DNA of 64,000 bases from Siphonodentalium dalli (Eukaryota; Mollusca; Scaphopoda; Gadilida; Siphonodentaliidae), in contig CP136066.1 of assembly GCA_032622095.1 (NCBI GenBank), positions 205,800,978-205,864,977 of the forward strand, given 5' to 3'. The position numbers and the translations under genes were made by a program. Under the pieces are notes generated by a model, which saw only the letters and a list, made by a program, of their open reading frames with translations, did no database searches and had not been told where the DNA came from. This document shows, in pieces, positions 4,072-38,160 of this stretch (positions are counted from its first letter, which is position 1; each line of letters opens with the position of its first letter).

Positions 4072-4393
4072 TCCATATGAAAGTTTGCAATTGACTGAGG
4101 ACACGATAAGTCCCTAACATGTAATTTTTGTGTGCTTGTTTTTTTGTTTTTGTTCTTACTTTTTGAATTGTATTGCTGTTATTTATTACACTCCTGTGCG
4201 CGATTTCCTTTGAAAACGCTGTTAATTAAAAATGGTAATGTCACTAGTGAATTATGTCATTTTCCGTGACGTCATTGACGTTACGTCGCTTACTGATCTA
4301 GACTGAATTTTCGATGGTTGATCTTTCTCCACATCGGGACATTCATGCATTAATTATGTGTGTTTTAATCATATTTGGCGAACCAAATTGATG
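4072..4393. other. Inter-ORF region of LINE 1
   Basis: Sequence following the ORF1 stop, T-rich around 4136-4190, with no open frame. It may be part inter-ORF spacer and part later insertion. Confidence 0.4.
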
Positions 4394-4582
4394 CAGAAGT
4401 GTAATAAATAGAGTAATCAATTAGTTCCGAAAATTACGTTCAATAATTCACTCGAGGCGAGAGACGTTTGGGTAAGAAACTCGTGCGCTAACGCGCACTC
4501 ATTTCTTACCAACGTCTCTCGCCTCTCGTGAATTATTTAACGTAATTATTGGAACCAATTGATTACTCTCTATATCACTTCT
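4394..4582. mobile_element. Palindromic MITE
   Basis: Inverted arms run from CAGAAGTG on the left to CACTTCTG on the right. The inner arm sequence GGCGAGAGACGTT is mirrored as AACGTCTCTCGCC, around a short loop near 4479-4489. The arms are about 85 bp and imperfect. It lies between ORF1 and ORF2 of the LINE and so helps explain the long spacer. No coding capacity. Confidence 0.75.
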
Positions 4583-6078: not shown

Positions 6079-8925
6079 ATGAGTAATATTAAAGTGTTGT
6101 CTCTGAACTGCCGTGGACTTAACCAAACCGAGAAACGCCGCGACGTCTTTAATCACATTCGTAACCTTGGTGGATCGATATATTGTTTGCAAGACACACA
6201 CTTCACAAAACACATGGAAAGATGCATTGAAGCAGAATGGGGATTTAAAGCGATAATGGCATCATACACTTCCCAGGCTAGGGGTGTAGCTATTTTATTT
6301 AAAAACAACTTCGAATATATTATTCACGAAACACATAGAGATACCAATGGGAATTTTATTATACTAGATATAACTATAGAAAATATTCGTTTAAGTTTGG
6401 TGAACTTGTATGGACCAAATGAAGATAATCGAGCCTTTTACGCAAACTTGAAAAAAATAATTACCCAGATTGGGAACACGCAAATAATCATGTGCGGAGA
6501 CTGGAACCTTGTTGGGAATCAAGACCTAGATACTTATAACTACAAGCATACAAATAATCCCAATGCCAAAAATGCAGTTGGTGACCTTGCAGGCAGCCTT
6601 GAGCTAGTTGATGCATGGAGACTATTTAACAAACAGGAAAGACGTTACACGTGGAGAAGGAAATCCCCAATTAAAATGGCGAGGCTAGATTACTTTTTAA
6701 TTTCTGAGGACCTCCTTAACCTAATGGAAGGAATGGCAATTTTACCTGGGTACAAATCAGACCATTCTATTATTTCACTCCAATTAAAACTCAGTAATAT
6801 CAAGTCTGGTCCGGGTTTCTGGAAATTTAATAACTCTCTTCTGTACTGTAGAGAATATGTTGATTTAGTAAAAGGAATTATAACTGAAAATAAAATGAGA
6901 TACTCACACTCCTCTTATGAGACTGTAAATGAAAGTAAAACAAAATGCTCCATTAGCAAACGTCTATTCCTCGACGCAGTGCTGCTTGATATCAGAGGCG
7001 CCACTATACGCTTTTCAGCAAACCGCAAACGAGAACGAACGAAAATTGAGAAAAATCTAACATCCAAAAAAGCGAACATTATTTTAGACCTAGGGAAACC
7101 ATCGCATACATCCGAAGAAAAACAACAAAAAATGAATGACTTAGAAAAAGTAGAAGTTGAAATCGAAAAAATGCAAAAAGAAACAATCCGCGGATCCATG
7201 GTTAGATCTCGCTCAAAATGGATAGAGGATGGTGAAAAACCAACAAAATACTTTCTTAATCTAGAAAAACGTAATTATATTTCAAAAACTCTTACTTGTT
7301 TGACCTCCGCAAATGGTAGTCCTATCACAAAACAAGCCGATATCATGAAAGAAGCAAGAAACTTTTACCTTAATTTATACTCTAGTAGGTCTATGGATGA
7401 TCGTGACATACATTCCGTCCTTAACAATGGGTCATTTCCCAACCTAAGCACTATGCAAGCAACAAGTATTGAAGGGCCATTAACCCTACAAGAATTAACA
7501 GACGCCCTGAGGAAAACCAAAAATAATAAAAGCCCAGGGCCTTCATGATACACATGTGAATTTTATAAATTCTTTTGGTCTGACTTTGGCCCCCTTTTAA
7601 CAGAGTCGCTAAATGAATCATTTTCAACGGGAGAACTGTCAATCACACAAAAGCAAGGAATTATAATAATGATCCTTAAAAAGGACAGAAATAGGCAGAT
7701 GTTAAAAAACTGGCGTCCTATTACCCTTTTGAATACATCTTACAAACTAGCCTCGTCATGTATAGCGGACAGACTAAAACGTGTACTCCCATCGATAATC
7801 AACCCTGATCAAACCGGGTTTTTATCGGGTAGATATATAGGTGACAACACCCGACTAATATACGACATAATTCACAGGACAAAACAAAAAATAAATCTGG
7901 CCTACTACTTCTTATCGATTTTGAAAAAGCATTTGACACTGTTTCATGGTCATTTATAAGAAAATGTCTTGACCTTTTTAATTTCGGAGATTCTGTAAAG
8001 AAATGGCTATCAATTTTGTATGAGAATGCCAGCTCATCTATTCTGATTAATGGTCATATTTCTCAGAGCTTCATGCTAGGTAGAGGCTGCCGCCAGGGTG
8101 ACCCAATATCACCGTATATCTTTCTCCTCTGTGCTGAAGTTTTGGCGCTGATGATACGCCAAAACAATACAATTAAAGGGATATTCCTCGGTGGTTCAGA
8201 GTACAAAATAACACAATATGCGGACGACACGACGCTCATTCTTGATGGTTCTGAAAATAGTCTACGCGAATCATACTTAACACTGGACGAATTTGCTCGG
8301 GTATCGGGTCTGCGCATAAATCCTGAAAAGTGTCAAGCATCATGGATAGGGATAGGGTCACATACTAAAATAAGACAAGTTCTTAAGGAATTAAACCTGT
8401 CTACTGTAAACACTTTTAATTTGCTAGGGATACATTTCGACACTAATTTAACAAACATGAATATAAACTACAATTATAAACTCGAAGATATAGAAAAGAT
8501 CAAAAATATTTGGAAACACAGACTCCTGACCCCGTTAGGTAGAATAACAGTTGTCAAATCCCTTATCTTACCAAAATTGACACACCTATTTATAACCCTC
8601 CCAAGCCCAGATACAGCATTTGTGAAGACCATAAATACCATTCTATATCATTTCATCTGGAATTCCAAACGCGATAGAATAAAAAGAAAACAATTATGTG
8701 CCGAATATATGTACGGAGGTTTGAAGTTGATTAATGTTGAAAACTTTGATAGCGTCATAACGTACAGGAAACCATTTCTCACATTTTCTGGGATTGTCCC
8801 CACGTCCAAACCTTTATGACAGAAATTAAAACATGGGCAAGAAACAACCAATTTCCCATTGATCTAACAAAAACGAATATCATTATTGGCATAGATCATG
8901 AATACAAAAATTCAAAAAGTAATCT
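6079..8925 (+). pseudogene. LINE ORF2 (endonuclease-reverse transcriptase), Tx1/L1-like, broken
   Basis: This is the retrotransposition enzyme. The N-terminal APE-type endonuclease shows LSLNCRGLNQ near residue 6, then LQDTHF, LVNLYGPNEDN, MCGDWNLV and ARLDYFLIS, ending with GYKSDHSII. A linker follows, then the reverse transcriptase: SPGP near 7535, NWRPITLLN, DQTGFLSGRYIGDN, DFEKAFD in a shifted frame near 7918, GCRQGDPISPY and the catalytic QYADDTT at about 8216. Damage: an in-frame TGA at 7546-7548, a frameshift near 7905, and a further frame change plus apparent internal deletion near 8760. There a His/Cys tail (HIFWDCPH) resumes in another frame, far too soon after the polymerase. The C-terminus and 3' UTR are missing. 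The second LINE probably inserted at about 8925. Confidence 0.88.
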
Positions 8926-13143: not shown

Positions 13144-16100
13144 AATAGAAATAGAAAATCATTATCCCGATATCGCTCTGGTGGTCTCTGTATCCTCGTC
13201 GTTGAACATCTAGTTAAATTCGTACAACCACTGGAAGGCTACTGTGAGTATATTGTCTGGCTGAAAGTCTTTATGGGTCAAACTTCCATACTGGTCGGAA
13301 ATGCGTATGTACCACCTGAGGGTACAAAATATAGTTCTAAAGACTGTTTCGATACGATATTCAGAAATATAGCTGAGGCAAAAACATGTGGGGAAAACAT
13401 TCTAATCTTTGGTGATTTTAATGCCAGAACAGCTCGTTTGATCGATTATATAATGCCCGACAAAACTCACAATGACCTAGCCCCACTGATTGAACTACCT
13501 AGAAGGCACTCGCTGGACAAACGGACGAATAACTTCGGCTATAAACTTATTGACTTGTGTAAAAGTGCTGAAGTTTTCATAGCCAATGGTAGGATTGGAA
13601 TGGACGCTGGTATCGGTCTCCCTACGTGTAAGAATGTTAGTGTCATAGACTATCTTTTGAGTTCGTATCACCTTCTACCAATTATTTCAGAATTCAAAAT
13701 AAGTGAATTCAATGATCTCTTGTCTGATGTACATAATGCAGTTTTTTGTGAGATTGACATTCGAGATGCTAATTGCGCTGAGAACCAATTTATTAATCGA
13801 ACCATTCCAACACATCAACCGTACGCAGGACGGTTAATACAATCGCGAACTATTAATTCGCCATCTCCGGACAAGGAACCAACATTTATTAAAAATCTCA
13901 ATGCCGAAAAAATCGCGGAGTTTGGCAGGAGCGTGAATATGAAAGATGTCGCAGATATAAGGCAGAATGATATAGATATTCTAAATAACATGCTAAAAGA
14001 AATTTACTGCGATGCTGCAAGCACCGCCTTTGGGACAAAACAAACTAAAAATAAAAATCGTTTCACTCGACGCCCGAGCAAACCGAAACCATGGTTTACC
14101 CATGACTGCTCAAGCTCTAGAAAACAATATAAAAAAGCATACACAAATTATAAGAAAAACAAAAATGACATAAACCATTCTCGCCTATTGGAAGCTAGGA
14201 CAATATATAAGAGGTCGATTAGAGCGAGTAAACGACAGTTTCAAAATAACCTAAGCAAAAGTATATCTAAAACAAGATTAGAAAATTCTCGCGACTATTG
14301 GAGGTTATTGGGTGCATCGAGAAAAGCGCGACAACCTGCAACTAAGCCTTCACTATCAGAATTCCACGATTTCTTTGCCAACCTTAACAGTAACCAAAAT
14401 GATGAAGATACACAGTTTGTACCTGAACACATTCAAACATCTTGTCTCGATTACGAGATCAGTCTTGATGAAGTCGAACATTCGATTCAAAAACTTATAA
14501 CTGGGAAAGCCCCTGGCATTGACGAAGTGAGAAATGATTTTATAAAACTTGCAGCTAGCCCACTGAAAGACCATATCCGATCCTTCTTTAATATAATTTT
14601 AGTTTCAGGGACAGTTCCACATGAATGGGGAATAGGAATTATTCAACCAATTTTTAAGTCAAATGACCCCTCCTCACCGTCAAACTATCGTCCTATCACC
14701 TTGGTGAGCTGCATAGCAAAGCTGTTTACATCGATATTGAGTAACCGGATTCAGATGTTTTTAGAAACTAATAATCTCTTGTCCGAAAACCAGACTGGTT
14801 TTCGTTCCAATTATTCGACCACAGATCACATTTTCACCATTAACTGTTTGATTGATTTACTGAAAACGCAGAAAAGAAACCTTTATTGTTCGTTCATTGA
14901 CCTATCCAAAGCTTTTGATAAAGTCTGGCGAACTGGTTTATGGAGAAAACTCTTTGACATAGGAGTAAAAGGCAGAGTTCTGAAAGTAATAGTAAATATG
15001 TATGTTGGTATTAAGTCATGCGTGTCGGTAAATAACTCTTTTTCTGATCTATTCCCATGCGAACTCGGAGTTAGACAAGGTGATAAACCTCTCACCCATC
15101 CTATTTTCCATATACACGAATGATTTAGAGAACTTCCTCAGTCAGAACCAACAGAATGGTTTACTAATCACTAACCCTAAAGTTGGATCTAGTTTACCGT
15201 TGCTAAAGCTTTTCTGTCTGCTTTACGCAGACGACACGGTCCTCATGTCATACACTGCAGCCGGTCTGCAATCGGCCCTAGATGACTATGCCCAATATTG
15301 CAAAAAATGGAAACTTGTCATTAATGATGCCAAAAGCAAGGTAGTTATATTTGGTAGAAAAAAACCAACCAAGATTCAGTTTACTATTGACTCTCGACCT
15401 TTAGAGACGGTAAAACATTATAAATATCTCGGCGTCACTTTCTCATCCACCGGGTCATTCATCGAAGAAAAGAAAACACGATGTCAGCAAGCTAAACGAG
15501 CGATGTTCGGACTCATTGGTAAGATCCGGAACTTGAAACTATCTTTAAAGTGTACTATAGATCTATATGAGAAAACGATAGTCCCAATAATAACTTACGG
15601 ATCTGAAATATGGGGTATTGGAAGTCTAGCGATTGTTGAAAGACTAGAATTATGGTTTCTAAAATTCATACTTAGACTTAAAAAGACCACACCCACTGCT
15701 TTTATCTATGGAGAACTCGGTATATTCCCTATTTCATTGAAAATTCAACAAAGAATTTTGAACTTTTGGGGACGACTGGTGACTGGTAAACGCGACAAAC
15801 TCTCTTATCTTATGTACTGGAGGTTGTGCAGTCAATTTAATCAGACAGATATTTTCAAAAACCATAAATCTAATTGGATTAATTATGTATCGAAATTATT
15901 ACATGATATTGGCATGAGCGGGGTGTGGAAATTTCATTCAATTGGAACATTGAGATCGTTTCGGGAGGTCACAAAGCGAAAACTCGAAGACACTTACATC
16001 CAACAATGGCGGAACACATTGTCCTCATCAACAAAATACTCATTTTACCGAGAAATAAAACTAATATTCAAAGAAGAAGACTATATAACAAAATTAAATA

Positions 16101-16426
16101 CAAACGATGCGCTAACACTAATCAAATTTAGAACACGTAACCATAGACTACCCGTTGAAGTAGGTGACTGGACTAGTGCGCTGGCAGAGGACAGAACGTG
16201 CACATTTTGCGATTACTCTGAGATCGGAGACGAATTTCATGTTCTTCTTAAATGCCCGAAATTTAACTCCATCAGATCTAGATACATTGCTCCGTACTAC
16301 TACACAAGACCCAACATGTTTAAGTTGAGTCAACTGATGAACAACCGAAAACCACGGGTTACACGCGGAATTGCTAGAGTAGTCTCTGAAGTAAATAATC
16401 TTATATCTGAAATCCCGATGCTATGA
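13144..16426 (+). pseudogene. Second LINE ORF2 (endonuclease-reverse transcriptase), nearly open
   Basis: A reading frame runs from the ORF1 stop through GGLCILVVEHLVKFV, so the first roughly 100 residues of the APE endonuclease are missing and ORF1 almost abuts the rest. Endonuclease motifs seen are GNAYVPPEG, IFGDFNAR and VIDYLLSS. A basic linker and the reverse transcriptase follow: GKAPGIDEV, NYRPITLVSC, ENQTGFR, SFIDLSKAFDKVW, GVRQGD, LLYADDTVLMS (about 15219) and KYLGVTF. The C-terminal thumb ends with a Cys/His cluster (CTFC, FHVLLKC). The only break is a single extra base in the A-run at about 15080-15085, just after RQGD, which shifts the frame. There is no RNase H domain. The style resembles CR1/Jockey-type LINEs, but the clade is not assigned. 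Confidence 0.88.
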
Positions 16427-18205: not shown

Positions 18206-18211
18206 AGTGGT
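18206..18211. repeat. 6-bp target site duplication, left copy (AGTGGT)
   Basis: AGTGGT lies immediately before the first base of the palindromic element. The identical hexamer is at 27858-27863 immediately after it. Host sequences beyond the two copies are unrelated, as expected of an integration footprint. Confidence 0.8.
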
Positions 18212-18222
18212 AGAAGAATAGC

Positions 18223-18360
18223 CGTCTCGTTCGCGCCACATCTAAAAATAGAATCTTTGGGTCTAAAATTGGTTGTGGGTGTCTCGTTACCTTCACATCT
18301 AAAAATAGAATCTTTGGGTCTAAAAATTGTTTGAGGGTAAAATTGTTTGAGGGTAAAATT
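18223..18360 (+). repeat. Subterminal repeat at the left end (two 58-bp units)
   Basis: TCTCGTT...ACATCTAAAAATAGAATC and CTTTGGGTCTAAAA occur twice, with starts at 18223 and 18281. The same core recurs once, in the same orientation, near the centre at 22759. These iterated terminal motifs could be recognition sites for a replication or integration protein (inference). Confidence 0.75.
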
Positions 18361-18745
18361 GGTTGTACTAAAATATTCCCAAAATATCAAAACCCAAAAT
18401 ATTTTTTCAAAACCCAAAACTTCCAAAATTTCAAAAACTTCCAAAATTTCAAAAACTTTCAAATATTTCAAAAATTTCAAAAACTTTCAAATATTTCAAA
18501 AATTTCAAAAACTTCCAAAATTTCCAGAATTTCCAAAACTTCCAAAATTTCCAAAACTTCCAAAATTTCCAAAATTTCCAAAATTTCCAAAACTTACAAA
18601 ATTTCCAAAACTCCAAAAATTTCCAAAATTTCCAAAATTTCCAAAACTTCCAAAATTTCCAAAACTCCAAAAATTTCCAAAACTTCCAAAATTTCCAAAA
18701 TTTCAAAAACTTCCAAAATTTCCAAAACTTCCAAAATTTCAATAT
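18360..18745 (+). repeat. CCAAAATTT/CCAAAACTT minisatellite
   Basis: About 40 imperfect copies of a 9-bp unit, TTCCAAAAT or TTCCAAAAC, with TTTCAAAAA variants near the outer end. Open frames through it (Lys-Phe-Pro and Ile-Ser-Lys repeats) exist in several frames simply because the unit lacks stops. I do not call them genes. Confidence 0.85.
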
Positions 18746-18835
18746 AATGAAGATGACGAGCAACCAATTTTCGACTGGCCTGAGGCATTACGTTATGGAA
18801 TGAATAACGACAGCGGATCAGAATGCATACATATA

Positions 18836-19330
18836 GTACGTCACTTGGACATTTTATCAGTTTATCACATGATCACTAAATGTGGCAATCGGGTATCCAC
18901 CGATGCCTGCAATATATTATTTATAATAATTGGACTCATTGATCTCACGTGAATAATACTCTTAGTTGTTCCAATAAAATAGTTATCAAATTCGATCACC
19001 AATAGATTTGACTGTGGAATGTAAGGACCTTTAACTTATTTATCGATCTAAAGGGACACTCATTATGAATGAATGTTAACAATACAAGCGCACGAATGAA
19101 GAGCGTTGAACATATACGAAATTACTACACGAATGAATTGAACCTTGAAATTTATATTTTCAAATCTTACCAACAACAGCTACAGACATAATCATAGTAT
19201 TATACTGTCTTGCATGTACACACGCTATGACATCATTAAAGGCGGACAATCCACTCACGGTGTGACAACAGATACGGACATAGGCATGGTGTTATACAGT
19301 CTTCTATGTACCCACGCTATGACACCATTA
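18836..19330. repeat. Intra-arm duplication A (outer copy)
   Basis: This block contains TAGTACGTCACTTGGACA, ACTCATTGATCTCACGTGAA, then AAGGGACACTCATTATGAAT and GCACGAATGAAGAGCGTTGA. It recurs further inside the arm, split into 20384-20601 and 20993-21330, with about 390 bp between the halves. The mirror image is in the right arm. The arm therefore grew by internal duplication before it was doubled into a palindrome. Confidence 0.75.
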
Positions 19331-19374
19331 ACGTACATTGGATGTTAGGTATATGACTCTTGAGTATGTACCGA

Positions 19375-20115
19375 TCAATGAGCAAATGAGCAAAAAACTG
19401 AGCAAATGAGCAAGAAAATGAGCAAATGAGCAATAAAAATGAGCAAATGAGCATAAAAATGAGCAAATGAGCAAGAAAATGAGCAAATGAGCAAGAAAAT
19501 GAGCAAATGAGCAAGAAAATGAGCAAATGAGCATAAAAATGAGCAAAAAAATGAGCAAATGAGCAATAAAAATGAGCAAATGAGCAAGAAAATGAGCAAA
19601 TGAGCAAGAAAATGAGCAAATGAGCAATAAAAATGAGCAAATGAGCAAAAAAATGAGCAAATGAGCAAGAAAATGAGCAAATGAGCAATAAAAATGAGCA
19701 AATGAGCAAATAAATGAGCAAATGAGCAAGAAAATGAGCAAATGAGCAATAAAAATGAGCAAATGAGCAAATAAATGAGCAAATGAGCAATAAAAATGAG
19801 CAAATGAGCAAAAAAATGAGCAAATGAGCAATAAAAATGAGCAAATGAGCAAATAAATGAGCAAAAAAATGAGCAAATGAGCAAATAAATGAGCAAATGA
19901 GCAATAAAAATGAGCAAATGAGCAAAAAAATGAGCAAATGAGCAATAAAAATGAGCAAATAAATGAGCAAATGAGCAAAAAAATGAGCAAATGAGCAAAT
20001 AAATGAGCAAATGAGCAAGGAAATGAGCAAATGAGCAAATAAATGAGCAAATGAGCAAAAAAATGAGCAATAAAATGAGCAAATGAGCAATAAAAATGAG
20101 CAAATGAGCAAAAAA
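19375..20115 (-). repeat. GAGCAAAT minisatellite (left arm)
   Basis: Dozens of GAGCAAATGAGCAA units separated by AAAA, GAAA, TAAA or TAAAA. Read on the minus strand, all three frames are open, giving artificial Leu-Leu-Ile-Cys-Ser-Phe repeats of 240-320 codons. This array holds the 58-bp length difference between the arms. Confidence 0.9.
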
Positions 20116-20383
20116 ATGGGCATACCTGTATGTAGGCCTACCAGTGGATGAATAGTCTGCCGGAGAAGTACTGTGTAGACAGGTCTTGTCAGTAAGAGAG
20201 TCAGACGATAAGTGAAGGCTCGGCTATTAAAACATAGTAATGCGATAGCGAACATCAAACGAGTCTGCGCACGCATATCTGTCAAAGGATACGATGGCAG
20301 TCATTGGTCAATTTATCCCCGGTGTCAGCTCAGTACCCAATCGGGACGAAGCCGAAGGTCAACTCATTTTTTTTTTGCTCATT

Positions 20384-21330
20384 ATAGTACGTCACTTGGA
20401 CATTTTATCAGTTTATCACGTGATCACTAAATGTGGCAATCGGGTATCCACCGATGCCTGCAATTTATTATTTATAATAATTGGACTCATTGATCTCACG
20501 TAAATAATACTCTTAGTTGTTCCAATAAAATAGTTATCAAATTCGATCACCAATAGATTTGACTGTGGAATATAATGACCTTTAACTTATTTATCGATCT
20601 ATGTTAGAACATGGTCTTAACAAAAAACTTGACCATAACAAAAATTACCTTACATTTATGCATGAATCTAATTAGACCATACGTAAATATTGTCAGCTTA
20701 TCGTCTGATGAGCAAATCCGATGTTTATCAAAAATAGTACAACTTCCAGTTGGTAATTACTCTTACGAATGAAGAGCGTTGAACATATACGAAATTACTA
20801 CACGAATGAACTGAAATTTATATTTTCACATCTTACCAACAACAGATACAGACATAGTCATAGTGTTATACTATCTTACATGTACCCATGCTATGACATC
20901 ATTCGAAGGGGCAATACACTCAAGGAGTTAAAGTGACACGAAACAAGGGACGTGATGTAATATTGGTGTTTGAATCTTAAAGGAACACAAGACACTCTAA
21001 AGGGACACTCATTATGAATGAATGTTAACAATACAAGCGCACGAATGAAGAGCGTTGAACATATACGAAATTACTACACGAATGAATTGAACCTTGAAAT
21101 TTATATTTCACATCTTACCAACAACAGCTACATGCATTATCATAGGGTTATACTGTCTTGCATATACACACGCTATGACATCATTAAAGGCGAACAATCC
21201 ACTCACGGTGTGACAACAGATACAGACATAGGCATAGTGTTATACAGTCTTCTATGTACCAATGCTATGACATAATTAAAGGGGGATAATACACGCACGG
21301 TGTGGAATGTTAAAGTGACACGCGGTAAGG
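20384..21330. repeat. Intra-arm duplication A (inner copy, split)
   Basis: 20384-20601 repeats 18836-19050. 20993-21330 repeats 19045-19330 and is followed by a third, shorter copy of part of it (21240-21290). Between them, 20750-20900 also carries a partial copy (AATGAAGAGCGTTGAACATA). No gene. Confidence 0.7.
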
Positions 21331-21407
21331 GACGTGATGTAATATTGGTGAAACCCCCTCCCCACTTATAGATATATAACGAAGACGAGAATAACATGTT
21401 GATGAAG

Positions 21408-21413
21408 TTTATT
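21408..21413 (-). terminator. AATAAA polyadenylation signal for the left-arm ORFs
   Basis: TTTATT on the plus strand, that is AATAAA on the minus strand, six bases after the stop of the 189-aa ORF. Exact mirror of 24598-24603. Confidence 0.6.
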
Positions 21414-21418
21414 GAAAT

Positions 21419-21988
21419 TTAATCATTGTCTGAATCTTCGACCGTTAGATTTACTTCTAAGAGTTTCTTGAATTTTCTCATCGCTTCATCTGCAGCCCAT
21501 TCATTATTATATCCGTGTTTGGTCAGTTTGACCATTTTCTTCATGATCATGGTATGTATGCGTGATGTTTTCAATCGATACTGGTATTCTATTAATCGTC
21601 TATAACTTTTGAGAAACAGAGCAAACTCTGTGTCGATGGTATCCTCTTTTCCCGACATGCTCTCATCTCCCGAAATGCTCTCTTCTTCTTTCACATCATT
21701 GGTGACGCGTTTCATCATACTTTTGAATGTGTCCATCTCGTTGACACATCGCGCAGCTTTCTTAAGACCGAATACCGTTCTACTACCGACGCCATTACCA
21801 TCTTCTGAATCTGATAGCGTTCCACGTTCATCTTCATCTGAATCTAGAACCGCTTCGTCAGATTCATCGGTATCTTCTCCGAAGAGAGTTGGTTTTGTCT
21901 CGGACATAACTCCGTGTTTAATCTGTTTATGTCTTTGTAGATTGTAGTTCGTCGATAAAATAATGCCACATAAATCACACCCGTGCAT
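21419..21988 (-). CDS. C2H2 zinc-finger acidic protein, left-arm copy (189 aa)
   Basis: Mirror copy of 24023-24592, with an identical predicted protein. It is read outward from the palindrome centre, overlaps the end of the 64-aa ORF by 14 bases, and is followed at once by AATAAA. See the right-arm entry for domains. That both copies are open and identical shows either very recent duplication or gene conversion between arms. Confidence 0.65.
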   Translation of the reverse strand: MHGCDLCGIILSTNYNLQRHKQIKHGVMSETKPTLFGEDTDESDEAVLDSDEDERGTLSDSEDGNGVGSRTVFGLKKAARCVNEMDTFKSMMKRVTNDVKEEESISGDESMSGKEDTIDTEFALFLKSYRRLIEYQYRLKTSRIHTMIMKKMVKLTKHGYNNEWAADEAMRKFKKLLEVNLTVEDSDND

Positions 21989-22169
21989 TATCGCGAATTA
22001 TTGGAAGAACCATCACTCTTATAAGTAGCGATAAAAAGAGAGAATAAGGTGCGGTATACAACCGTCGCTCTAAGAGTACGTTCGTCCCGGGGCTAGGGTA
22101 TAGATATTTGACCGCCGGTGATTCAATTAATGCCAATTTATCAGTATGGTACTCTATGTATTCATTCAT
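21975..22169 (-). CDS. Small ORF between the two larger ones, left-arm copy (64 aa)
   Basis: Mirror copy of 23842-24036. It starts seven bases after the stop of the 108-aa ORF and overlaps the next ORF by 14 bases. Unrecognised. Its expression is uncertain. Confidence 0.4.
   Translation of the reverse strand: MNEYIEYHTDKLALIESPAVKYLYPSPGTNVLLERRLYTAPYSLFLSLLIRVMVLPIIRDNARV
22016..22024 (-). promoter_or_regulatory. TATAAGAG box before the zinc-finger ORF (left arm)
   Basis: Minus-strand TTATAAGAG about 28 bases before the ATG of the 189-aa ORF, mirroring 23987-23995. It is very like the box in front of the 108-aa ORF, which suggests a shared promoter type. Confidence 0.45.
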
Positions 22170-22176
22170 GATTTGG

Positions 22177-22503
22177 CTAATCGTATGACACTGCTCTTTT
22201 CATTTTCTTCTTATTATTATTAGACAAACCTCCATCAGACACTCTCTTGTTGGTTTGTTTGGACGCTTTACGTGTGTTTGTCAACTTATTTGCTGCAACT
22301 TCAGCCTTAGCCATTTCAATCGCTTGAGCGATGGGTGTCACCACGTTAATAAGTGGTTTTAGAACGTCTTCTTCACTATCACTAGTTTTAGTTTTGTCAA
22401 TAAAGTATCGACCCTGATTATCTGGCATTAACTTCCCATCAACCATATCTCTGAAATGTTTTCTCCACATTTCAATATCTGCTGGAATATACGGGATCGA
22501 CAT
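22177..22503 (-). CDS. Basic-tailed 108-aa protein, left-arm copy
   Basis: Mirror copy of 23508-23834, with an identical predicted protein. It is the innermost ORF of the arm, preceded by a TATAAGAG box near 22571. See the right-arm entry. Confidence 0.6.
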   Translation of the reverse strand: MSIPYIPADIEMWRKHFRDMVDGKLMPDNQGRYFIDKTKTSDSEEDVLKPLINVVTPIAQAIEMAKAEVAANKLTNTRKASKQTNKRVSDGGLSNNNKKKMKRAVSYD

Positions 22504-22562
22504 GTTTCTTCAAAATGTACAAGTCACTCTTTTTTCTGCATTTTATTTTAGAAAGTTTATCG

Positions 22563-22571
22563 CCTCTTATA
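22563..22571 (-). promoter_or_regulatory. TATAAGAGG box with upstream CCAAT (left arm)
   Basis: Minus-strand TATAAGAGG with GGCCAATAAT about 18 bases further upstream. It lies about 65 bases before the ATG of the 108-aa ORF. Mirror of 23440-23448. Confidence 0.5.
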
Positions 22572-22758
22572 AAAATCGATTATTGGCCATGAATGCCAAA
22601 TGCACCATGATAGTTATCGATGTCAATAATGCGTTTCGTTGAGATCTTGATTGAGTATGCACCAATCAATGAGCAAATAAATGAGCAAGCAGGATGTTAT
22701 GTCGCTTGGTGGCGGAGGTAGCATCACCAAATTACCCTCGGGGGACCTCATTCTGCCA

Positions 22759-22932
22759 TCTAAAAATAGAATCTTTGGGTCTAAAATTGGTTGTACTAAA
22801 ATATTCCCAAAAACCCAAAACTTCAAAAATTTCAAAAAACTTCAAAAATTTCAAAAAATTTCAAAAACTTCAAAAATTTCAAAAACTTCAAAAATTTCAA
22901 AAAACTTCAAAAATTTCAAAAACTTCAAAAAT
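22759..22932 (+). repeat. Inner copy of the subterminal motif plus TTCAAAAA minisatellite
   Basis: TCTAAAAATAGAATC, CTTTGGGTCTAAAATTGG and TTGTACTAAAATATTCCC repeat the left-terminal block in the same orientation. They are followed by an analogous TTCAAAAA(T/C) array. Thus the sequence near the centre copies the terminal arrangement as a direct repeat of the left end, not as an inverted terminal repeat. Confidence 0.8.
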
Positions 22933-22933
22933 A

Positions 22934-23084
22934 AGACCCCGGCGGCGGCGGCGGCGGCGGCGGCGCCGGTATTTTACTGCGGTGGCGGTGCCTCCGCCGC
23001 CGCCGCCGGGGTCCGCCGCCGGCGGACCCCGCAGTAAAATACCGGCGGCGCCGCCGCCGCCTCCGCCGCCGGGGTCTTATTTTT
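22934..23084. repeat. GC-rich centre of the palindrome with GGC/GCC runs
   Basis: CGG/CCG repeats flank ATTTTACTGC (22971-22980) and its complement GCAGTAAAAT (23031-23040). The bases 22981-23030 do not mirror about the main axis. They contain their own small hairpin, GGGGTCCGCC/GGCGGACCCC (23008-23017 and 23021-23030). This asymmetric spacer is the true turning point of the palindrome. The GC content contrasts sharply with the AT-rich arms. Confidence 0.85.
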
Positions 23085-23252
23085 GAAGTTTTTGAAATTT
23101 TTGAAGTTTTTTGAAATTTTTGAAGTTTTTGAAATTTTTGAAGTTTTTGAAATTTTTTGAAATTTTTGAAGTTTTTTGAAATTTTTGAAGTTTTGGGTTT
23201 TTGGGAATATTTTAGTACAACCAATTTTAGACCCAAAGATTCTATTTTTAGA
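23079..23252 (-). repeat. Mirror of the inner subterminal motif and minisatellite
   Basis: Reverse complement of 22759-22932: a TTTTGAAG/TTTTGAAA array, then GGGAATATTTTAGTACAACC and GACCCAAAGATTC. Confidence 0.8.
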
Positions 23253-23439
23253 TGGCAGAATGAGGTCCCCCGAGGGTAATTTGGTGATGCTACCTCCGCC
23301 ACCAAGCGACATAACATCCTGCTTGCTCATTTATTTGCTCATTGATTGGTGCATACTCAATCAAGATCTCAACGAAACGCATTATTGACATCGATAACTA
23401 TCATGGTGCATTTGGCATTCATGGCCAATAATCGATTTT

Positions 23440-23448
23440 TATAAGAGG
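23440..23448 (+). promoter_or_regulatory. TATAAGAGG box with upstream CCAAT (right arm)
   Basis: TATAAGAGG follows ATCGATTTT, with GGCCAATAAT at 23423-23432. The box sits about 65 bases before the ATG at 23508, leaving room for a short leader. The same TATAAGAG core precedes the zinc-finger ORF. Confidence 0.5.
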
Positions 23449-23507
23449 CGATAAACTTTCTAAAATAAAATGCAGAAAAAAGAGTGACTTGTACATTTTG
23501 AAGAAAC

Positions 23508-23834
23508 ATGTCGATCCCGTATATTCCAGCAGATATTGAAATGTGGAGAAAACATTTCAGAGATATGGTTGATGGGAAGTTAATGCCAGATAATCAGGGT
23601 CGATACTTTATTGACAAAACTAAAACTAGTGATAGTGAAGAAGACGTTCTAAAACCACTTATTAACGTGGTGACACCCATCGCTCAAGCGATTGAAATGG
23701 CTAAGGCTGAAGTTGCAGCAAATAAGTTGACAAACACACGTAAAGCGTCCAAACAAACCAACAAGAGAGTGTCTGATGGAGGTTTGTCTAATAATAATAA
23801 GAAGAAAATGAAAAGAGCAGTGTCATACGATTAG
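23508..23834 (+). CDS. Unrecognised 108-aa protein with basic, NLS-like tail (right arm)
   Basis: Family not recognised with confidence. It starts at an ATG in a good context (AACATGT) after a TATA box. The N-terminus MSIPYIPADIEMWRKHF is followed by a GK-rich turn, then DSEED and a central helix-like stretch rich in Ala, Glu and Lys. The last 30 residues are Asn/Lys/Arg-rich and include KKKMKR, which resembles a nuclear localisation or DNA-binding tail. It is the innermost gene of the arm, is transcribed outward and ends seven bases before the 64-aa ORF. In an adenovirus- or Polinton-like element a small basic protein could be a DNA-condensing or minor virion component. That is inference from context only. 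An identical second copy lies in the left arm. Confidence 0.6.
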   Translation: MSIPYIPADIEMWRKHFRDMVDGKLMPDNQGRYFIDKTKTSDSEEDVLKPLINVVTPIAQAIEMAKAEVAANKLTNTRKASKQTNKRVSDGGLSNNNKKKMKRAVSYD

Positions 23835-23841
23835 CCAAATC

Positions 23842-24036
23842 ATGAATGAATACATAGAGTACCATACTGATAAATTGGCATTAATTGAATCACCGGCGGT
23901 CAAATATCTATACCCTAGCCCCGGGACGAACGTACTCTTAGAGCGACGGTTGTATACCGCACCTTATTCTCTCTTTTTATCGCTACTTATAAGAGTGATG
24001 GTTCTTCCAATAATTCGCGATAATGCACGGGTGTGA
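23842..24036 (+). CDS. 64-aa small ORF (right arm)
   Basis: Begins MNEYIEYHTDKLALIESP, seven bases after the preceding stop, and overlaps the next ORF by 14 bases. The middle has a TNVLLERR segment and a short hydrophobic C-terminal stretch (LFLSLLIRVMVLPII). The TATA box for the next gene lies inside it. Such tight packing is virus-like, but there is no independent evidence that it is translated. It could be the leftover of a larger structural gene. I do not recognise it. Confidence 0.4.
   Translation: MNEYIEYHTDKLALIESPAVKYLYPSPGTNVLLERRLYTAPYSLFLSLLIRVMVLPIIRDNARV
23987..23995 (+). promoter_or_regulatory. TATAAGAG box before the zinc-finger ORF (right arm)
   Basis: TTATAAGAG about 28 bases before the ATG at 24023, the spacing expected for a TATA box with a very short leader. 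It shares TATAAGAG with 23440-23448. Confidence 0.45.
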
Positions 24037-24592
24037 TTTATGTGGCATTATTTTATCGACGAACTACAATCTACAAAGACATAAACAGATTAAACACGGA
24101 GTTATGTCCGAGACAAAACCAACTCTCTTCGGAGAAGATACCGATGAATCTGACGAAGCGGTTCTAGATTCAGATGAAGATGAACGTGGAACGCTATCAG
24201 ATTCAGAAGATGGTAATGGCGTCGGTAGTAGAACGGTATTCGGTCTTAAGAAAGCTGCGCGATGTGTCAACGAGATGGACACATTCAAAAGTATGATGAA
24301 ACGCGTCACCAATGATGTGAAAGAAGAAGAGAGCATTTCGGGAGATGAGAGCATGTCGGGAAAAGAGGATACCATCGACACAGAGTTTGCTCTGTTTCTC
24401 AAAAGTTATAGACGATTAATAGAATACCAGTATCGATTGAAAACATCACGCATACATACCATGATCATGAAGAAAATGGTCAAACTGACCAAACACGGAT
24501 ATAATAATGAATGGGCTGCAGATGAAGCGATGAGAAAATTCAAGAAACTCTTAGAAGTAAATCTAACGGTCGAAGATTCAGACAATGATTAA
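24023..24592 (+). CDS. 189-aa protein with one N-terminal C2H2 zinc finger and acidic regions (right arm)
   Basis: MHGCDLCG starts a single C2H2 finger (Cys4, Cys7, His20, His25; spacing C-x2-C-x12-H-x4-H) ending QRHKQIKH, so a nucleic-acid- or protein-binding role is likely. Residues about 36-65 are highly acidic (DTDESDEAVLDSDEDE). A second acidic stretch lies near residue 105 (KEEESISGDES). The C-terminal 60 residues are Lys/Arg-rich and helix-like (MIMKKMVKLTKH), ending DSDND. It is intronless, and AATAAA follows the stop within about six bases. The combination suggests a small viral regulatory or DNA-associated protein. No family is assigned. It overlaps the 64-aa ORF and has its own TATA-like box. 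The left arm has an identical copy. Confidence 0.65.
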   Translation: MHGCDLCGIILSTNYNLQRHKQIKHGVMSETKPTLFGEDTDESDEAVLDSDEDERGTLSDSEDGNGVGSRTVFGLKKAARCVNEMDTFKSMMKRVTNDVKEEESISGDESMSGKEDTIDTEFALFLKSYRRLIEYQYRLKTSRIHTMIMKKMVKLTKHGYNNEWAADEAMRKFKKLLEVNLTVEDSDND

Positions 24593-24597
24593 ATTTC

Positions 24598-24603
24598 AAT
24601 AAA
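24598..24603 (+). terminator. AATAAA polyadenylation signal for the right-arm ORFs
   Basis: AATAAA six bases after the 189-aa stop codon, followed by ordinary AT-rich DNA. Gene ends this tight are typical of compact viral elements. Confidence 0.6.
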
Positions 24604-24679
24604 CTTCATCAACATGTTATTCTCGTCTTCGTTATATATCTATAAGTGTGGAGGGGGTTTCACCAATATTACATCACGT

Positions 24680-25720
24680 CCCTTACCGCGTGTCACTTTA
24701 ACATTCCACACCGTGCGTGTATTATCCCCCTTTAATTATGTCATAGCATTGGTACATAGAAGACTGTATAACACTATGCCTATGTCTGTATCTGTTGTCA
24801 CACCGTGAGTGGATTGTCCGCCTTTAATGATGTCATAGCGTGTGTATATGCAAGACAGTATAACCCTATGATAATGCATGTAGCTGTTGTTGGTAAGATG
24901 TGAAATATAAATTTCAAGGTTCAATTCATTCGTGTAGTAATTTCGTATATGTTCAACGCTCTTCATTCGTGCGCTTGTATTGTTAACATTCATTCATAAT
25001 GAGTGTCCCTTTAGAGTGTCTTGTGTTCCTTTAAGATTCAAACACCAATATTACATCACGTCCCTTGTTTCGTGTCACTTTAACTCCTTGAGTGTATTGC
25101 CCCTTCGAATGATGTCATAGCATGGGTACATGTAAGATAGTATAACACTATGACTATGTCTGTATCTGTTGTTGGTAAGATGTGAAAATATAAATTTCAG
25201 TTCATTCGTGTAGTAATTTCGTATATGTTCAACGCTCTTCATTCGTAAGAGTAATTACCAACTGGAAGTTGTACTATTTTTGATAAACATCGGATTTGCT
25301 CATCAGACGATAAGCTGACAATATTTACGTATGGTCTAATTAGATTCATGCATAAATGTAAGGTAATTTTTGTTATGGTCAAGTTTTTTGTTAAGACCAT
25401 GTTCTAACATAGATCGATAAATAAGTTAAAGGTCATTATATTCCACAGTCAAATCTATTGGTGATCGAATTTGATAACTATTTTATTGGAACAACTAAGA
25501 GTATTATTTACGTGAGATCAATGAGTCCAATTATTATAAATAATAAATTGCAGGCATCGGTGGATACCCGATTGCCACATTTAGTGATCACGTGATAAAC
25601 TGATAAAATGTCCAAGTGACGTACTATAATGAGCAAAAAAAAAATGAGTTGACCTTCGGCTTCGTCCCGATTGGGTACTGAGCTGACACCGGGGATAAAT
25701 TGACCAATGACTGCCATCGT
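24680..25720. repeat. Right-arm mirror of intra-arm duplication A (inner copy)
   Basis: Reverse complement of about 20290-21330. It carries the duplicated ATTCGTGTAGTAATTTCGTA and TGAGTGTCCCTTTAGA segments. No gene. Confidence 0.7.
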
Positions 25721-25895
25721 ATCCTTTGACAGATATGCGTGCGCAGACTCGTTTGATGTTCGCTATCGCATTACTATGTTTTAATAGCCGAGCCTTCACT
25801 TATCGTCTGACTCTCTTACTGACAAGACCTGTCTACACAGTACTTCTCCGGCAGACTATTCATCCACTGGTAGGCCTACATACAGGTATGCCCAT

Positions 25896-26694
25896 TTTTT
25901 TGCTCATTTGCTCATTTTTATTGCTCATTTGCTCATTTTATTGCTCATTTTTTTGCTCATTTGCTCATTTATTTGCTCATTTGCTCATTTTCTTGCTCAT
26001 TTGCTCATTTATTTGCTCATTTGCTCATTTTTTTGCTCATTTGCTCATTTATTTGCTCATTTGCTCATTTTTATTGCTCATTTGCTCATTTTTTTGCTCA
26101 TTTGCTCATTTTTATTGCTCATTTGCTCATTTATTTGCTCATTTGCTCATTTTTTTGCTCATTTATTTGCTCATTTGCTCATTTTTATTGCTCATTTGCT
26201 CATTTTTATTGCTCATTTGCTCATTTTTATTGCTCATTTGCTCATTTATTTGCTCATTTGCTCATTTTTATTGCTCATTTGCTCATTTTCTTGCTCATTT
26301 GCTCATTTATTTGCTCATTTGCTCATTTTTATTGCTCATTTGCTCATTTTCTTGCTCATTTGCTCATTTTTTTGCTCATTTGCTCATTTTTATTGCTCAT
26401 TTGCTCATTTTCTTGCTCATTTGCTCATTTTCTTGCTCATTTGCTCATTTTTATTGCTCATTTGCTCATTTTTTTGCTCATTTGCTCATTTTTATGCTCA
26501 TTTGCTCATTTTCTTGCTCATTTGCTCATTTTCTTGCTCATTTGCTCATTTTTATTGCTCATTTGCTCATTTTCTTGCTCATTTGCTCATTTTCTTGCTC
26601 ATTTGCTCATTTTTATGCTCATTTGCTCATTTTTATTGCTCATTTGCTCATTTTCTTGCTCATTTGCTCAGTTTTTTGCTCATTTGCTCATTGA
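25896..26694 (+). repeat. TTGCTCATTTGCTCAT minisatellite (right arm)
   Basis: Mirror of the left GAGCAAAT array and 58 bp longer. It is stop-free in all three plus frames, giving spurious ORFs of 263-322 codons. One spurious ORF starts at an ATG at 25726 upstream of the array, and I do not support it as a gene. Confidence 0.9.
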
Positions 26695-26738
26695 TCGGTA
26701 CATACTCAAGAGTCATATACCTAACATCCAATGTACGT

Positions 26739-27235
26739 TAATGGTGTCATAGCGTGGGTACATAGAAGACTGTATAACACCATGCCTATGTCCGTATCTG
26801 TTGTCACACCGTGAGTGGATTGTCCGCCTTTAATGATGTCATAGCGTGTGTACATGCAAGACAGTATAATACTATGATTATGTCTGTAGCTGTTGTTGGT
26901 AAGATTTGAAAATATAAATTTCAAGGTTCAATTCATTCGTGTAGTAATTTCGTATATGTTCAACGCTCTTCATTCGTGCGCTTGTATTGTTAACATTCAT
27001 TCATAATGAGTGTCCCTTTAGATCGATAAATAAGTTAAAGGTCCTTACATTCCACAGTCAAATCTATTGGTGATCGAATTTGATAACTATTTTATTGGAA
27101 CAACTAAGAGTATTATTCACGTGAGATCAATGAGTCCAATTATTATAAATAATATATTGCAGGCATCGGTGGATACCCGATTGCCACATTTAGTGATCAC
27201 GTGATAAACTGATAAAATGTCCAAGTGACGTACTA
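26739..27235. repeat. Right-arm mirror of intra-arm duplication A (outer copy)
   Basis: Reverse complement of about 18834-19330, including the GTGATCACGTGATAAACTGA variant that differs from the left arm by one base. Confidence 0.75.
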
Positions 27236-27323
27236 TATGTATGCATTCTGATCCGCTGTCGTTATTCATTCCATAACGTAATGCCTCAGGCCAGTCGAAA
27301 ATTGGTTGCTCGTCATCTTCATT

Positions 27324-27846
27324 ATATTGAAATTTTGGAAGTTTTGGAAATTTTGGAAGTTTTTGAAATTTTGGAAATTTTGGAAGTTTTGGAAATTTTT
27401 GGAGTTTTGGAAATTTTGGAAGTTTTGGAAATTTTGGAAATTTTGGAAATTTTTGGAGTTTTGGAAATTTTGTAAGTTTTGGAAATTTTGGAAATTTTGG
27501 AAATTTTGGAAGTTTTGGAAATTTTGGAAGTTTTGGAAATTCTGGAAATTTTGGAAGTTTTTGAAATTTTTGAAATATTTGAAAGTTTTTGAAATTTTTG
27601 AAATATTTGAAAGTTTTTGAAATTTTGGAAGTTTTTGAAATTTTGGAAGTTTTGGGTTTTGAAAAAATATTTTGGGTTTTGATATTTTGGGAATATTTTA
27701 GTACAACCAATTTTACCCTCAAACAATTTTACCCTCAAACAATTTTTAGACCCAAAGATTCTATTTTTAGATGTGAAGGTAACGAGACACCCACAACCAA
27801 TTTTAGACCCAAAGATTCTATTTTTAGATGTGGCGCGAACGAGACG
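27324..27846 (-). repeat. Right-arm mirror of the terminal minisatellite and subterminal motif
   Basis: TTTTGGAA(G/A) array (27324-27709), then GACCCAAAGATTCTATTTTT twice at 58-bp spacing, leading into the right terminus. Confidence 0.8.
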
Positions 27847-27857
27847 GCTATTCTTCT

Positions 27858-27863
27858 AGTGGT
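27858..27863. repeat. 6-bp target site duplication, right copy (AGTGGT)
   Basis: Exact match to 18206-18211, directly after the terminal CTTCT of the palindrome. The following GAAATGGG is host flank. Confidence 0.8.
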
Positions 27864-36167: not shown

Positions 36168-38160
36168 CAATATGAATCTACGAGAATATTATAGGTCGAT
36201 TATGAACCTATTTGCATAAGGATGTGTAAATATTATAGGTCGATTATGAACCTATTTGCATGAGGATGTGTAAATATTATAGGTCGGTTATGAACCTATT
36301 TGCATGAGGATATGTAAATATTATAGGTCGATTATGAACCTATTTGCATGAGGATTTGTAAATATTATAGGTCGATTATGAACCTATTTGCATGACGATA
36401 TGTAAATATTATAGGTCGATTATGAACCTATTTGCATGAGGATATGTAAATATTATAAGTCGATTATGAACCTATTTGCGTGAGGATATGTAAATATTAT
36501 AGGTCGATTGTGAACCTATTTGCATGAGGATATGTAAATAGTATAGGTCGATTATGAACCTATTTGCGTGAGGATATGTAAATATTATAGGTCGATTATG
36601 AACCTATTTGCATGAGGATATGTAAATATTATAGGTCGATTATGAATCTATTTGCGTGAGGATATGTAAATATTATAGGTCGATTGTGAACCTATTTGCG
36701 TGAGGATATGTAAATATTATAGGTCGATTATGAACCTATTTGCATGAGGATATGTAAATATTATAAGTCGATTATGAACCTATTTGCGTGAGGATATGTA
36801 AATATTATAGGTCGATTGTGAACCTAGTTGCATGAGGATATGTAAATAGTATAGGTCGATTATGAACCTATTTGCATGACGATATGTAAATATTATAGGT
36901 CGATTATGAACCTATTTGCATGAGGATATGTAAATATTATAAGTCGATTATGAACCTATTTGCGTGAAGATATGTAAATATTATAGGTCGATTGTGAACC
37001 TATTTGCATGAGGATATGTAAATATTATAGGTCGATTATGAATCTATTTGCGTGAGGATATGTAAATATTATAGGTCGATTGTGAACCTATTTGCGTGAG
37101 GATATGTAAATATTATAGGTCGATTATGAACCTATTTGCATGAGGATATGTAAATATTATAAGTCGATTATGAACCTATTTGCGTGAGTATATGTAAATA
37201 TTATAGGTCGATTGTGAACCTATTTGCATGAGGATATGTAAATAGTATAGGTCGATTATGAACCTATTTGCATGACGATATGTAAATATTATAGGTCGAT
37301 TATGAACCTATTTGCATGAGGATATGTAAATATTATAAGTCGATTATATGAACCTATTTGCGTGAGGATATGTAAATATTATAGGTCGATTGTGAACCTA
37401 TTTGCATGAGGATATGTAAATAGTATAGGTCGATTATGAACCTATTTGCGTGAGGATATGTAAATATTATAGGTCGATTATGAACCTATTTGCATGAGGA
37501 TATGTAAATATTATAGGTCGATTATGAATCTATTTGCGTGAGGATATGTAAATATGATAGGTCGATTGTGAACCTAGTTGCATGAGGATATGTAAATAGT
37601 ATAGGTCGATTGTGAACCTATTTTCATGAAAATATGTAAATATTATAGGTCGATTATGAACCTATTTGCGTGAGGATATGTAAATATTATAGGTCGATTA
37701 TGAACCTATTTGCATGAGGATTTGTAAATATTATAGGTCGATTATGAACCTATTTGCATGACGATATGTAAATATTATAGGTCGATTATGAACCTATTTG
37801 CATGAGGATATGTAAATATTATAAGTCGATTATGAACCTATTTGCGTGAGGATATGTAAATATTATAGGTCGATTATGAACCTATTTGCGTGAGGATATG
37901 TAAATATAATAGGTCGATTGTGAACCTATTTGCATGAGGATATGTAAATATTATAGGTCGATTGTGAACCTATTTGCGTGAGGATATGTAAATATAATAG
38001 GTAGATCATGAACCTATTTGCGTGAGGATATGTAAATATTATAGGTCGATTATGAACCTATTTGCACGAGGATATGTAACTATTATAGGTCGATTGTGAA
38101 CCTATTTGCATGAGGATATGTAAATATTATACGTCGATTGTGAACCTATTTGCACGATAA
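36168..38160 (+). repeat. 44-bp minisatellite, about 45 copies
   Basis: The unit contains TATAGGTCGATTATGAACCT, then ATTTGC(A/G)TGAGGATATG and TAAATAT. ATAGGT and ACCTAT give each unit a small dyad. Variants (AAGTCG, ATTGTGAAC, GCGTGAG, CATGACG) recur at multiples of 44 bp: for example TATAAGTCG near 36452, 36760, 36938, 37158, 37333 and 37819. This indicates higher-order duplication. No stable long ORF. Confidence 0.95.

What the first reader, a model, noticed from the sequence alone, without database searches (positions are those of the whole stretch)
18206..27863. 9.65-kb almost perfect palindrome with a 6-bp target duplication: a symmetric Polinton-like element
Seen: inverted arms of about 4.8 kb, ends AGAAGAATAG.../...CTATTCTTCT, and AGTGGT duplicated exactly at both junctions. 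Known: Polintons/Mavericks give 6-bp duplications and AG termini, and replicate by a protein-primed polymerase. Defective adenovirus genomes with one end duplicated in inverted orientation are known. Inferred: this is an integrated symmetric (snap-back) defective genome, mobilised in trans. As far as I know, palindromic Polinton derivatives are not a standard category.
Basis: partly seen in the sequence, partly recalled or inferred. Interest (0 to 1): 0.93.

Follow-up and report, generated by a model that had tools for sequence, protein, structure and literature searches.

The report
Giant palindromic satellite of Polinton viruses
This genome carries a young, multi-copy family of mobile elements whose whole 9.6-kb body is a mirror image of itself; they share the ends, and apparently borrow the copying machinery, of virus-like Polinton elements in the same genome, and both ends of a copy carry the same short variable tag.

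Summary
Window 18212-27857 is a 9646-bp near-perfect palindrome (6 arm-arm substitutions, 4 small indels) flanked by AGTGGT. It is not a one-off: of 12 copies with both arms read, 9 run mirrored to the centre; 13 of 14 copies with both ends read have exact 6-bp target duplications. The genome also holds 16-kb Polintons (PolB, chromo-integrase) with the same ends; 11 of 11 read at both ends have 6-bp duplications. Polinton pieces lie in the palindrome arm, but PolB and integrase do not. It is a non-autonomous Polinton derivative that spreads as a palindrome.

Two further findings. (1) The tip varies between copies but is identical at both ends of one copy: 24 of 25; 43 of 44 pairs in a tag scan. 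In 5 of 11 Polintons the ends diverge clearly beyond the outer 44-87 bp; in 6 they match over the 211-300 bp compared. (2) The centre folds as a T-shaped GC hairpin in 7 of 7 copies folded.

Best mechanism, inferred: helper-driven protein-primed copying, fold-back at the central hairpin rebuilding the second arm, integration by helper integrase. No extrachromosomal form was seen.

The parts
18206..18211 (.). left 6-bp target-site duplication AGTGGT
27858..27863 (.). right 6-bp target-site duplication AGTGGT
18212..27857 (.). whole palindromic element, 9646 bp
18212..18242 (+). left tip: (AGA)2 end motif plus variable patches at positions 7-14 and 21-25
27827..27857 (-). right tip, identical to the left tip
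18276..18321 (+). tip-like copy buried inside the terminus (arm 65-110)
   Evidence: sequence
27748..27793 (-). mirror copy of the buried tip
   Evidence: derived by symmetry
18414..18740 (+). subterminal 9-bp CCAAAATTT repeats; mirror at 27329-27655
19377..20122 (+). AATGAGCAAATGAGCAAAAA array; mirror at 25889-26692
20234..20327 (+). 94-bp segment, 89% to sequence just downstream of polB in Polinton A2 (arm 2023-2116)
21419..21988 (-). 189-aa ORF with a weak C2H2 zinc-finger match (below the Pfam cut-off); no relative found outside the family in the searches made
24023..24592 (+). mirror copy of the 189-aa ORF
21975..22169 (-). 64-aa ORF whose first 20 residues match the start of a Polinton A2 ORF next to the 108-aa gene (possible capsid gene, not confirmed); mirror at 23842-24036 (+)
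22177..22503 (-). 108-aa ORF, 77% to the 111-aa ORF of Polinton A1
23508..23834 (+). mirror copy of the 108-aa ORF
22757..22933 (+). buried Polinton-type subterminal sequence T' (arm 4546-4722) next to the centre, in the same orientation as the arm's own terminus
23078..23254 (-). mirror copy of T'
   Evidence: derived by symmetry
22970..23041 (.). centre: stem plus two GC-rich hairpin arms, predicted T/Y shape; 46-nt core between the perfect arms

Best explanation
A non-autonomous, palindromic Polinton (Maverick) derivative. SHOWN: both ends are Polinton tips of the A1 type; insertions carry 6-bp duplications; the arm holds Polinton segments but no match to PolB or integrase; the family is present as a palindrome in many copies, with one central loop common to most of those read; both tips of a copy are the same although tips differ between copies; mirrored private variants exist. 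INFERRED: the DNA is copied outside the chromosome by the helper's protein-primed PolB starting at the tip. Displaced or unfinished strands fold at the T-shaped central hairpin. The folded strand is copied round the hairpin, or primes itself, so the second arm is rebuilt from the first. The helper's chromo-domain integrase inserts the product with a 6-bp staggered cut. In full-length Polintons a lesser version of the same end copying, panhandle repair of the outermost part, makes the two tips match.
For: Palindrome and duplication. Of 12 copies with both arms read, 9 (e1, e3, e5-e10, e12) run to the centre, e4 keeps the centre with internal deletions, e2 and e11 lack much of one arm. 6-bp duplications 13 of 14. 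A1 Polinton: same tip, TIR about 1.2 kb at 97.9%, 16.2 kb, PolB, rve+chromo; 10 of 12 further A1 copies had the right end where expected, all 10 with a 6-bp duplication and identical first 60 bp. Arm versus Polintons: 3900-4366 at 88% (A2) and 82% (A1), plus smaller collinear pieces; PolB, integrase and ATPase of A1 have no tblastn match (E<=0.1) in the palindrome, only the last 35 residues of a 145-aa gene do. Tips equal at both ends in 24 of 25 copies, shuffled mean 1.5, maximum 9; tag scan 43 of 44 pairs, shuffled mean 4.3, maximum 15. 13 private variants mirrored in both arms of one copy in the arm body. e7 has the same central loop, a mirrored extra insert and none of the three ORFs. T-shaped minimum-energy fold in 7 of 7 loops folded, z -5.4 to -9.8. 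(AGA)2 and (AGT)2 ends are of the repeated Maverick end-motif type linked to jumping-back (PMC8097293, passages and section 7).
Against: No extrachromosomal or hairpin DNA was seen. In the arm body more variants are one-armed (35, of which 13 are in e4) than mirrored (13), so much of the arm identity could simply be youth. Gene conversion between integrated arms could also mirror variants. In 6 of 11 A1 Polintons the ends match over all or nearly all of the 211-300 bp compared, so short-tract end copying is seen clearly only in 5, and the sequence there is repetitive and hard to align. The centre is CGG-rich, so strong folding is partly expected; the centroid for e7 keeps only one of the two arms. 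The arm is only 82-88% like A1/A2 in its longest match; its immediate parent was not found, and A1 as helper rests on shared tips. One 40-bp piece (arm 3758-3797) matches TIR sequence out of order. e2 has no matching duplication.
Confidence: 0.7

Rival explanations
1. Ordinary non-autonomous Polinton with a palindrome formed once; the symmetry is kept by gene conversion between arms after insertion, with no special fold-back replication.
For: Shared central loop points to one origin; one-armed variants outnumber mirrored ones in the arm body; gene conversion in chromosomal palindromes is well known (recalled).
Against: Tips also match in 16-kb Polintons, and in 5 of 11 of them the sequence just inside the tip differs between the ends of the same copy: matching there was set at the very ends. 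Tip variants differ among palindromes whose other compared arm segments differ by only 0.06-0.45% on average.
Confidence: 0.22
2. Foldback-type DNA transposon of another superfamily (FB, Galileo or Tetris kind) with huge inverted repeats.
For: Long arms rich in short tandem repeats.
Against: 6-bp duplications and tips shared with an element encoding PolB and chromo-integrase.
Confidence: 0.03
3. Half-genome replicon: the native form is a 4.8-kb duplex with a protein-primed tip at one end and a covalently closed T-shaped hairpin telomere at the other; the chromosomal palindrome is its unfolded replication product. (A special case of the best explanation, not exclusive of it.)
For: T/Y-shaped minimum-energy fold in 7 of 7 loops, in both orientations as parvoviral flip and flop would give.
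Against: Both orientations are also expected from random insertion of any palindrome; no linear hairpin DNA was observed; no nickase domain in the 8 frames scanned.
Confidence: 0.3
4. Assembly or sequencing fold-back artefact.
For: Palindromic chimeric reads are a known artefact (recalled).
Against: Different flanks on the two sides and exact 6-bp duplications in 13 of 14 copies; mirrored pairs on several chromosomes.
Confidence: 0.01

Closest known systems
Polinton/Maverick elements (polintoviruses)
   Same: 6-bp duplications, AG ends with a repeated end motif, terminal inverted repeats, integrase and PolB in the full-length relatives
   Different: The palindrome has no PolB or integrase match, and inverted arms of 4.8 kb that make up the whole element; TIRs of intact vertebrate Mavericks are given as 46-1,447 bp (PMC8097293 section 7)
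Symmetric defective adenovirus genomes with one end duplicated (recalled; no paper seen)
   Same: Protein-primed ends on both sides of an inverted duplication
   Different: Here integrated, multi-copy, with a shared structured centre
Foldback transposons (FB, Galileo, Tetris; recalled apart from a listing and abstract start for Tetris)
   Same: Very long inverted repeats holding tandem repeats
   Different: Other superfamilies and target duplications (recalled)
Parvovirus/AAV hairpin telomeres and self-complementary genomes (recalled; AAV papers seen in listings only)
   Same: T-shaped GC hairpin that lets a strand fold into a full-length duplex; both orientations occur
   Different: At the centre of an integrated element with Polinton tips; no sequence relation tested or claimed

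Membership tests
Polinton/Maverick | 6-bp target-site duplication | tested here: met
   13 of 14 palindromes; 11 of 11 A1 Polintons with both ends read
Polinton/Maverick | AG...CT termini with repeated end motif and TIR | tested here: met
   (AGA)2 ends; motif type from PMC8097293; (AGA)2 itself is not among the three motifs listed there
Polinton/Maverick | protein-primed PolB encoded | tested here: not met
   no tblastn match of A1 PolB in the palindrome at E<=0.1; present between the same tips in A1. Hence 'non-autonomous derivative', not a full member
Polinton/Maverick | rve-type integrase encoded | tested here: not met
   no tblastn match of A1 integrase in the palindrome at E<=0.1, though a 27-bp nucleotide piece aligns to the integrase region of A2; rve+chromo in A1 and A2
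Polinton/Maverick | homologous internal sequence | tested here: met
   arm 3900-4366 at 82-88% and smaller collinear pieces
Polinton/Maverick | replication by terminal-protein priming | not testable with these tools
   inferred from tips and helper PolB
Foldback transposons | non-Polinton transposase / other duplication length | tested here: not met
   6-bp duplications and tips shared with a PolB/integrase element
Parvovirus-like hairpin telomere | T-shaped terminal hairpin | tested here: inconclusive
   predicted in the minimum-energy fold of 7 of 7 centres given, but at the centre of an integrated palindrome, not at a shown DNA end
Parvovirus-like hairpin telomere | nickase (Rep/NS1) | tested here: inconclusive
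   no such match in Pfam scans of 8 frames of the element; a helper could supply it

The most novel reading that the evidence does not exclude
The native element is a half-genome: a 4.8-kb linear DNA with a Polinton protein-primed tip at one end and a closed T-shaped hairpin telomere at the other. It would be a replicon kind joining adenovirus-type and parvovirus-type ends, parasitic on Polintons and inserted in chromosomes as its unfolded palindrome, with short variable end tags swapped among elements and copied from one end to the other at each cycle.
Probability: 0.3. Interest if true: 0.93.

Novelty: new variant of a known kind. Interest (0 to 1): 0.82.

Why it matters
Protein-primed replication of Polintons is, as far as I know, inferred mostly from gene content. 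Here over a thousand tip matches in one genome appear to record it: insertions have two identical, copy-specific tips, so end-to-end copying before integration can be read from sequence and tested. A palindrome that multiplies as a palindrome suggests that a protein-primed element can survive as a self-complementary satellite, a state known to me only for defective virus genomes and engineered vectors. It also gives a natural system for asking how cells tolerate 10-kb near-perfect palindromes.

Tried and rejected
Protein relatives: 189-aa ORF, 67 candidates but none at E<=0.001 in the protein collection; 189-aa and 108-aa ORFs, none in IMG/VR. Flip and flop of the centre as proof of hairpin replication: rejected, since random insertion of a palindrome gives the same. 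dN/dS of the 108-aa ORF (0.35 against A1, 0.59 against A2) as proof of function in the palindrome: rejected, as the constraint may date from its Polinton past. Nested mini-element at the centre: considered because T' lies on both sides of the GC core, not pursued. Whole-TIR matching of the A1 ends: not general; the claim was narrowed to the tip.

A count of the central loop genome-wide was wanted and never answered. The right ends of A1 copies L060 and L070 were not found by the pattern used; 7 of the 19 predicted left-end windows had no recognisable tip (the tip of L068 was placed by hand and confirmed).
Full report
OBSERVATION. The palindrome is real: 18212-27857, 9646 bp, AGTGGT on both sides. 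A MAFFT alignment of the arms shows 6 substitutions, 4 small indels (all in the AATGAGC array) and a central spacer; the repeat finder gives perfectly complementary arm stretches with a 46-nt core between the inner pair.

FAMILY. A 600-bp end probe gave 42 matches in the host assembly (2.23 Gb, 9 contigs), with 40 of 2255 first-look candidates scored; many lie in inverted pairs. I took 14 paired loci, the window's included. For 12 (e1-e12) both arms were read: 9 run to the centre, e4 has the centre but internal deletions, e2 and e11 lack much of one arm; e10 carries a nested insertion. For e13 and e14 only the ends were read. Exact 6-bp duplications flank 13 of 14; e2 is the exception. A second probe from the 189-aa ORF region gave 40 matches (40 of 1513 candidates scored), all 100% identical, among them 13 inverted pairs 2.39-2.72 kb apart, as expected around a palindrome centre; the other 14 places had no partner in this capped list. 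The two probes together touch 47 loci by my count (26, 27, 6 shared); some weaker end hits may be full Polintons.

HELPER. PF03175 (protein-primed PolB) gave 149 matching stretches with 69 of 1596 candidates scored, in several families. In the A1 copy on C2 the tip lies at 222982882 and its inverted partner near 222999106, with duplication CGTAGG and TIRs of about 1.2 kb. Its separate frames hold PolB (8.7e-52), integrase (rve 5.7e-15 plus chromo 8.1e-08) and a weak AAA/A32-like ATPase match below the curated cut-offs. Of 19 further predicted left-end windows 12 gave a tip; of the 12 right-end windows 10 gave the partner, all 10 with a 6-bp duplication. Palindrome arms contain Polinton pieces: arm 2023-2116 (89%, beside polB of A2), 3900-4366 (88% A2, 82% A1), 4373-4399 and 4400-4445, in the Polinton order; a 40-bp piece (3758-3797) matches TIR sequence out of that order. 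PolB, integrase and ATPase of A1 find no tblastn match in the palindrome at E<=0.1; the last 35 residues of A1's 145-aa ORF do. The 108-aa ORF is 77% identical to a 111-aa ORF of A1; the 64-aa ORF starts like the neighbouring Polinton gene. A2 (C6:65487979-65505625) has other tips, (AGT)2, duplication TCCGCC and 1.74-kb TIRs.

MATCHED VARIABLE TIPS. Within the first 200 bp, differences between palindromes are almost confined to positions 7-14 and 21-25 plus one G, and they are the same at both ends of a copy. Within-copy differences are 2 in 2408 sites over 12 copies; between-copy differences average 2.8%. The other arm segments compared (13-22 arms each) differ between copies by 0.06-0.45% on average. 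Over 14 palindromes and 11 A1 Polintons the first 31 bp are identical at both ends in 24 of 25, with 20 distinct tips; the exception (e14) differs by one base outside the patches; shuffling ends gives mean 1.5, maximum 9. Genome-wide the tip pattern occurs 570+568 times, against 3+6 for the reversed control. Of the first 100 listed, all on C1, 88 form 44 convergent pairs under 35 kb and 12 are unpaired; 43 pairs share the 9-nt tag and the other differs by one base; shuffled mean 4.3, maximum 15; sizes are 28 under 12.5 kb, 12 of 15.6-17.4 kb and 4 others. Of 8 polB places of the roughly 950-aa type checked, 5 lie inside such pairs (15.6-17.4 kb) and 3 in none (one of these, at 39.1 Mb, has a tip outside the pattern); of 7 places of the 189-aa core checked, 6 lie inside pairs (6.5-11.2 kb) and 1 in none. 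That the other short pairs are palindromes is inferred from size.

TRACT LENGTH. Comparing the two ends of 11 A1 Polintons over 211-300 bp: the first difference falls at 45-106 in 8, at 252 in one, nowhere in two. In 5 (L050, L053, L054, L055, L059) divergence beyond that point is clear, with 5-33 substitutions plus gaps; in 6 there are only 0-2 substitutions. In L053 the outer tips are identical but the buried second tips differ between ends. Stacked tips (arm 65-110; three in L099) suggest that new tips are added outside old ones. I read this as end-to-end copying that may be limited to the outermost part. What makes the patches variable is unexplained.

CENTRE. Seven of the 12 centres were folded; all 7 minimum-energy folds are a stem with two GC arms, though the e7 centroid keeps one arm. 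The 162-nt centre of the window folds at -106.5 kcal/mol, z -15.9. Orientation differs among copies, which random insertion alone explains. e5 and e12 have altered centres, e2 and e11 gave none by the pattern used. e7 keeps the loop but has a mirrored extra insert, mirrored repeated units and none of the three ORFs. So the ORFs are not needed for spread, and structural changes become mirrored.

MECHANISM. Inferred: helper PolB primes at the tip; strands fold at the central hairpin; the second arm is rebuilt; helper integrase inserts. In the arm-body segments (5-10 copies with both arms usable each) 13 private variants are mirrored in both arms of a copy and 35 are one-armed, 13 of these in e4. 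Mirrored private variants show arm-to-arm transfer but do not by themselves decide between replication and gene conversion; the matched tips of the 16-kb Polintons favour copying before integration. On recount I lowered confidence from 0.72 to 0.70 and raised gene conversion from 0.20 to 0.22, because short-tract copying is clear in 5 of 11, not in most.

LITERATURE. Repeated end motifs, 6-bp duplications and TIR sizes of Mavericks are from PMC8097293 (passages and section 7); PMC6431247 was seen in passages. The ten searches listed no paper on palindromic Polintons by title or abstract start, as far as listed (at most 20 rows each); I read none of the other papers, and subscription journals are mostly not held. 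Adenovirus panhandle repair, AAV telomeres and foldback elements are from memory.

Noticed in passing
C1:159746518-159783981 of the host genome: Six tips on the same strand about 5.4 kb apart with one shared tag, then one inverted tip: possibly a head-to-tail array of Polinton-derived units.
   Followed up: no
L099 (C5:165016200-165016540): Three stacked tips with different patches at one end of an element.
   Followed up: partly
L049 448-1062 and 1130-1678: The A2 Polinton carries PC4-like and TATA-binding-protein-like frames (Pfam 4.7e-08 and 5.7e-28), suggesting transcription factors of its own.
   Followed up: no
L023 from 7226 to L024 3704: About 4.95-kb insertion in e10 with 452-bp direct end repeats (99.6%) and apparent duplication CTTAAG: an LTR-like element inside the palindrome.
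   Followed up: partly
window 36185-38154 and 47062-48585: Two satellite-like arrays, 44-bp and 37-bp units, about 45 and 41 copies.
   Followed up: no
window 6079-8819 and 13273-16426: Open frames with endonuclease and reverse-transcriptase domains, LINE-like.
   Followed up: no
PF03175 family B, loci L031-L043: A second Polinton family with mostly 1312-1330-aa PolB frames; its ends were not looked at.
   Followed up: no
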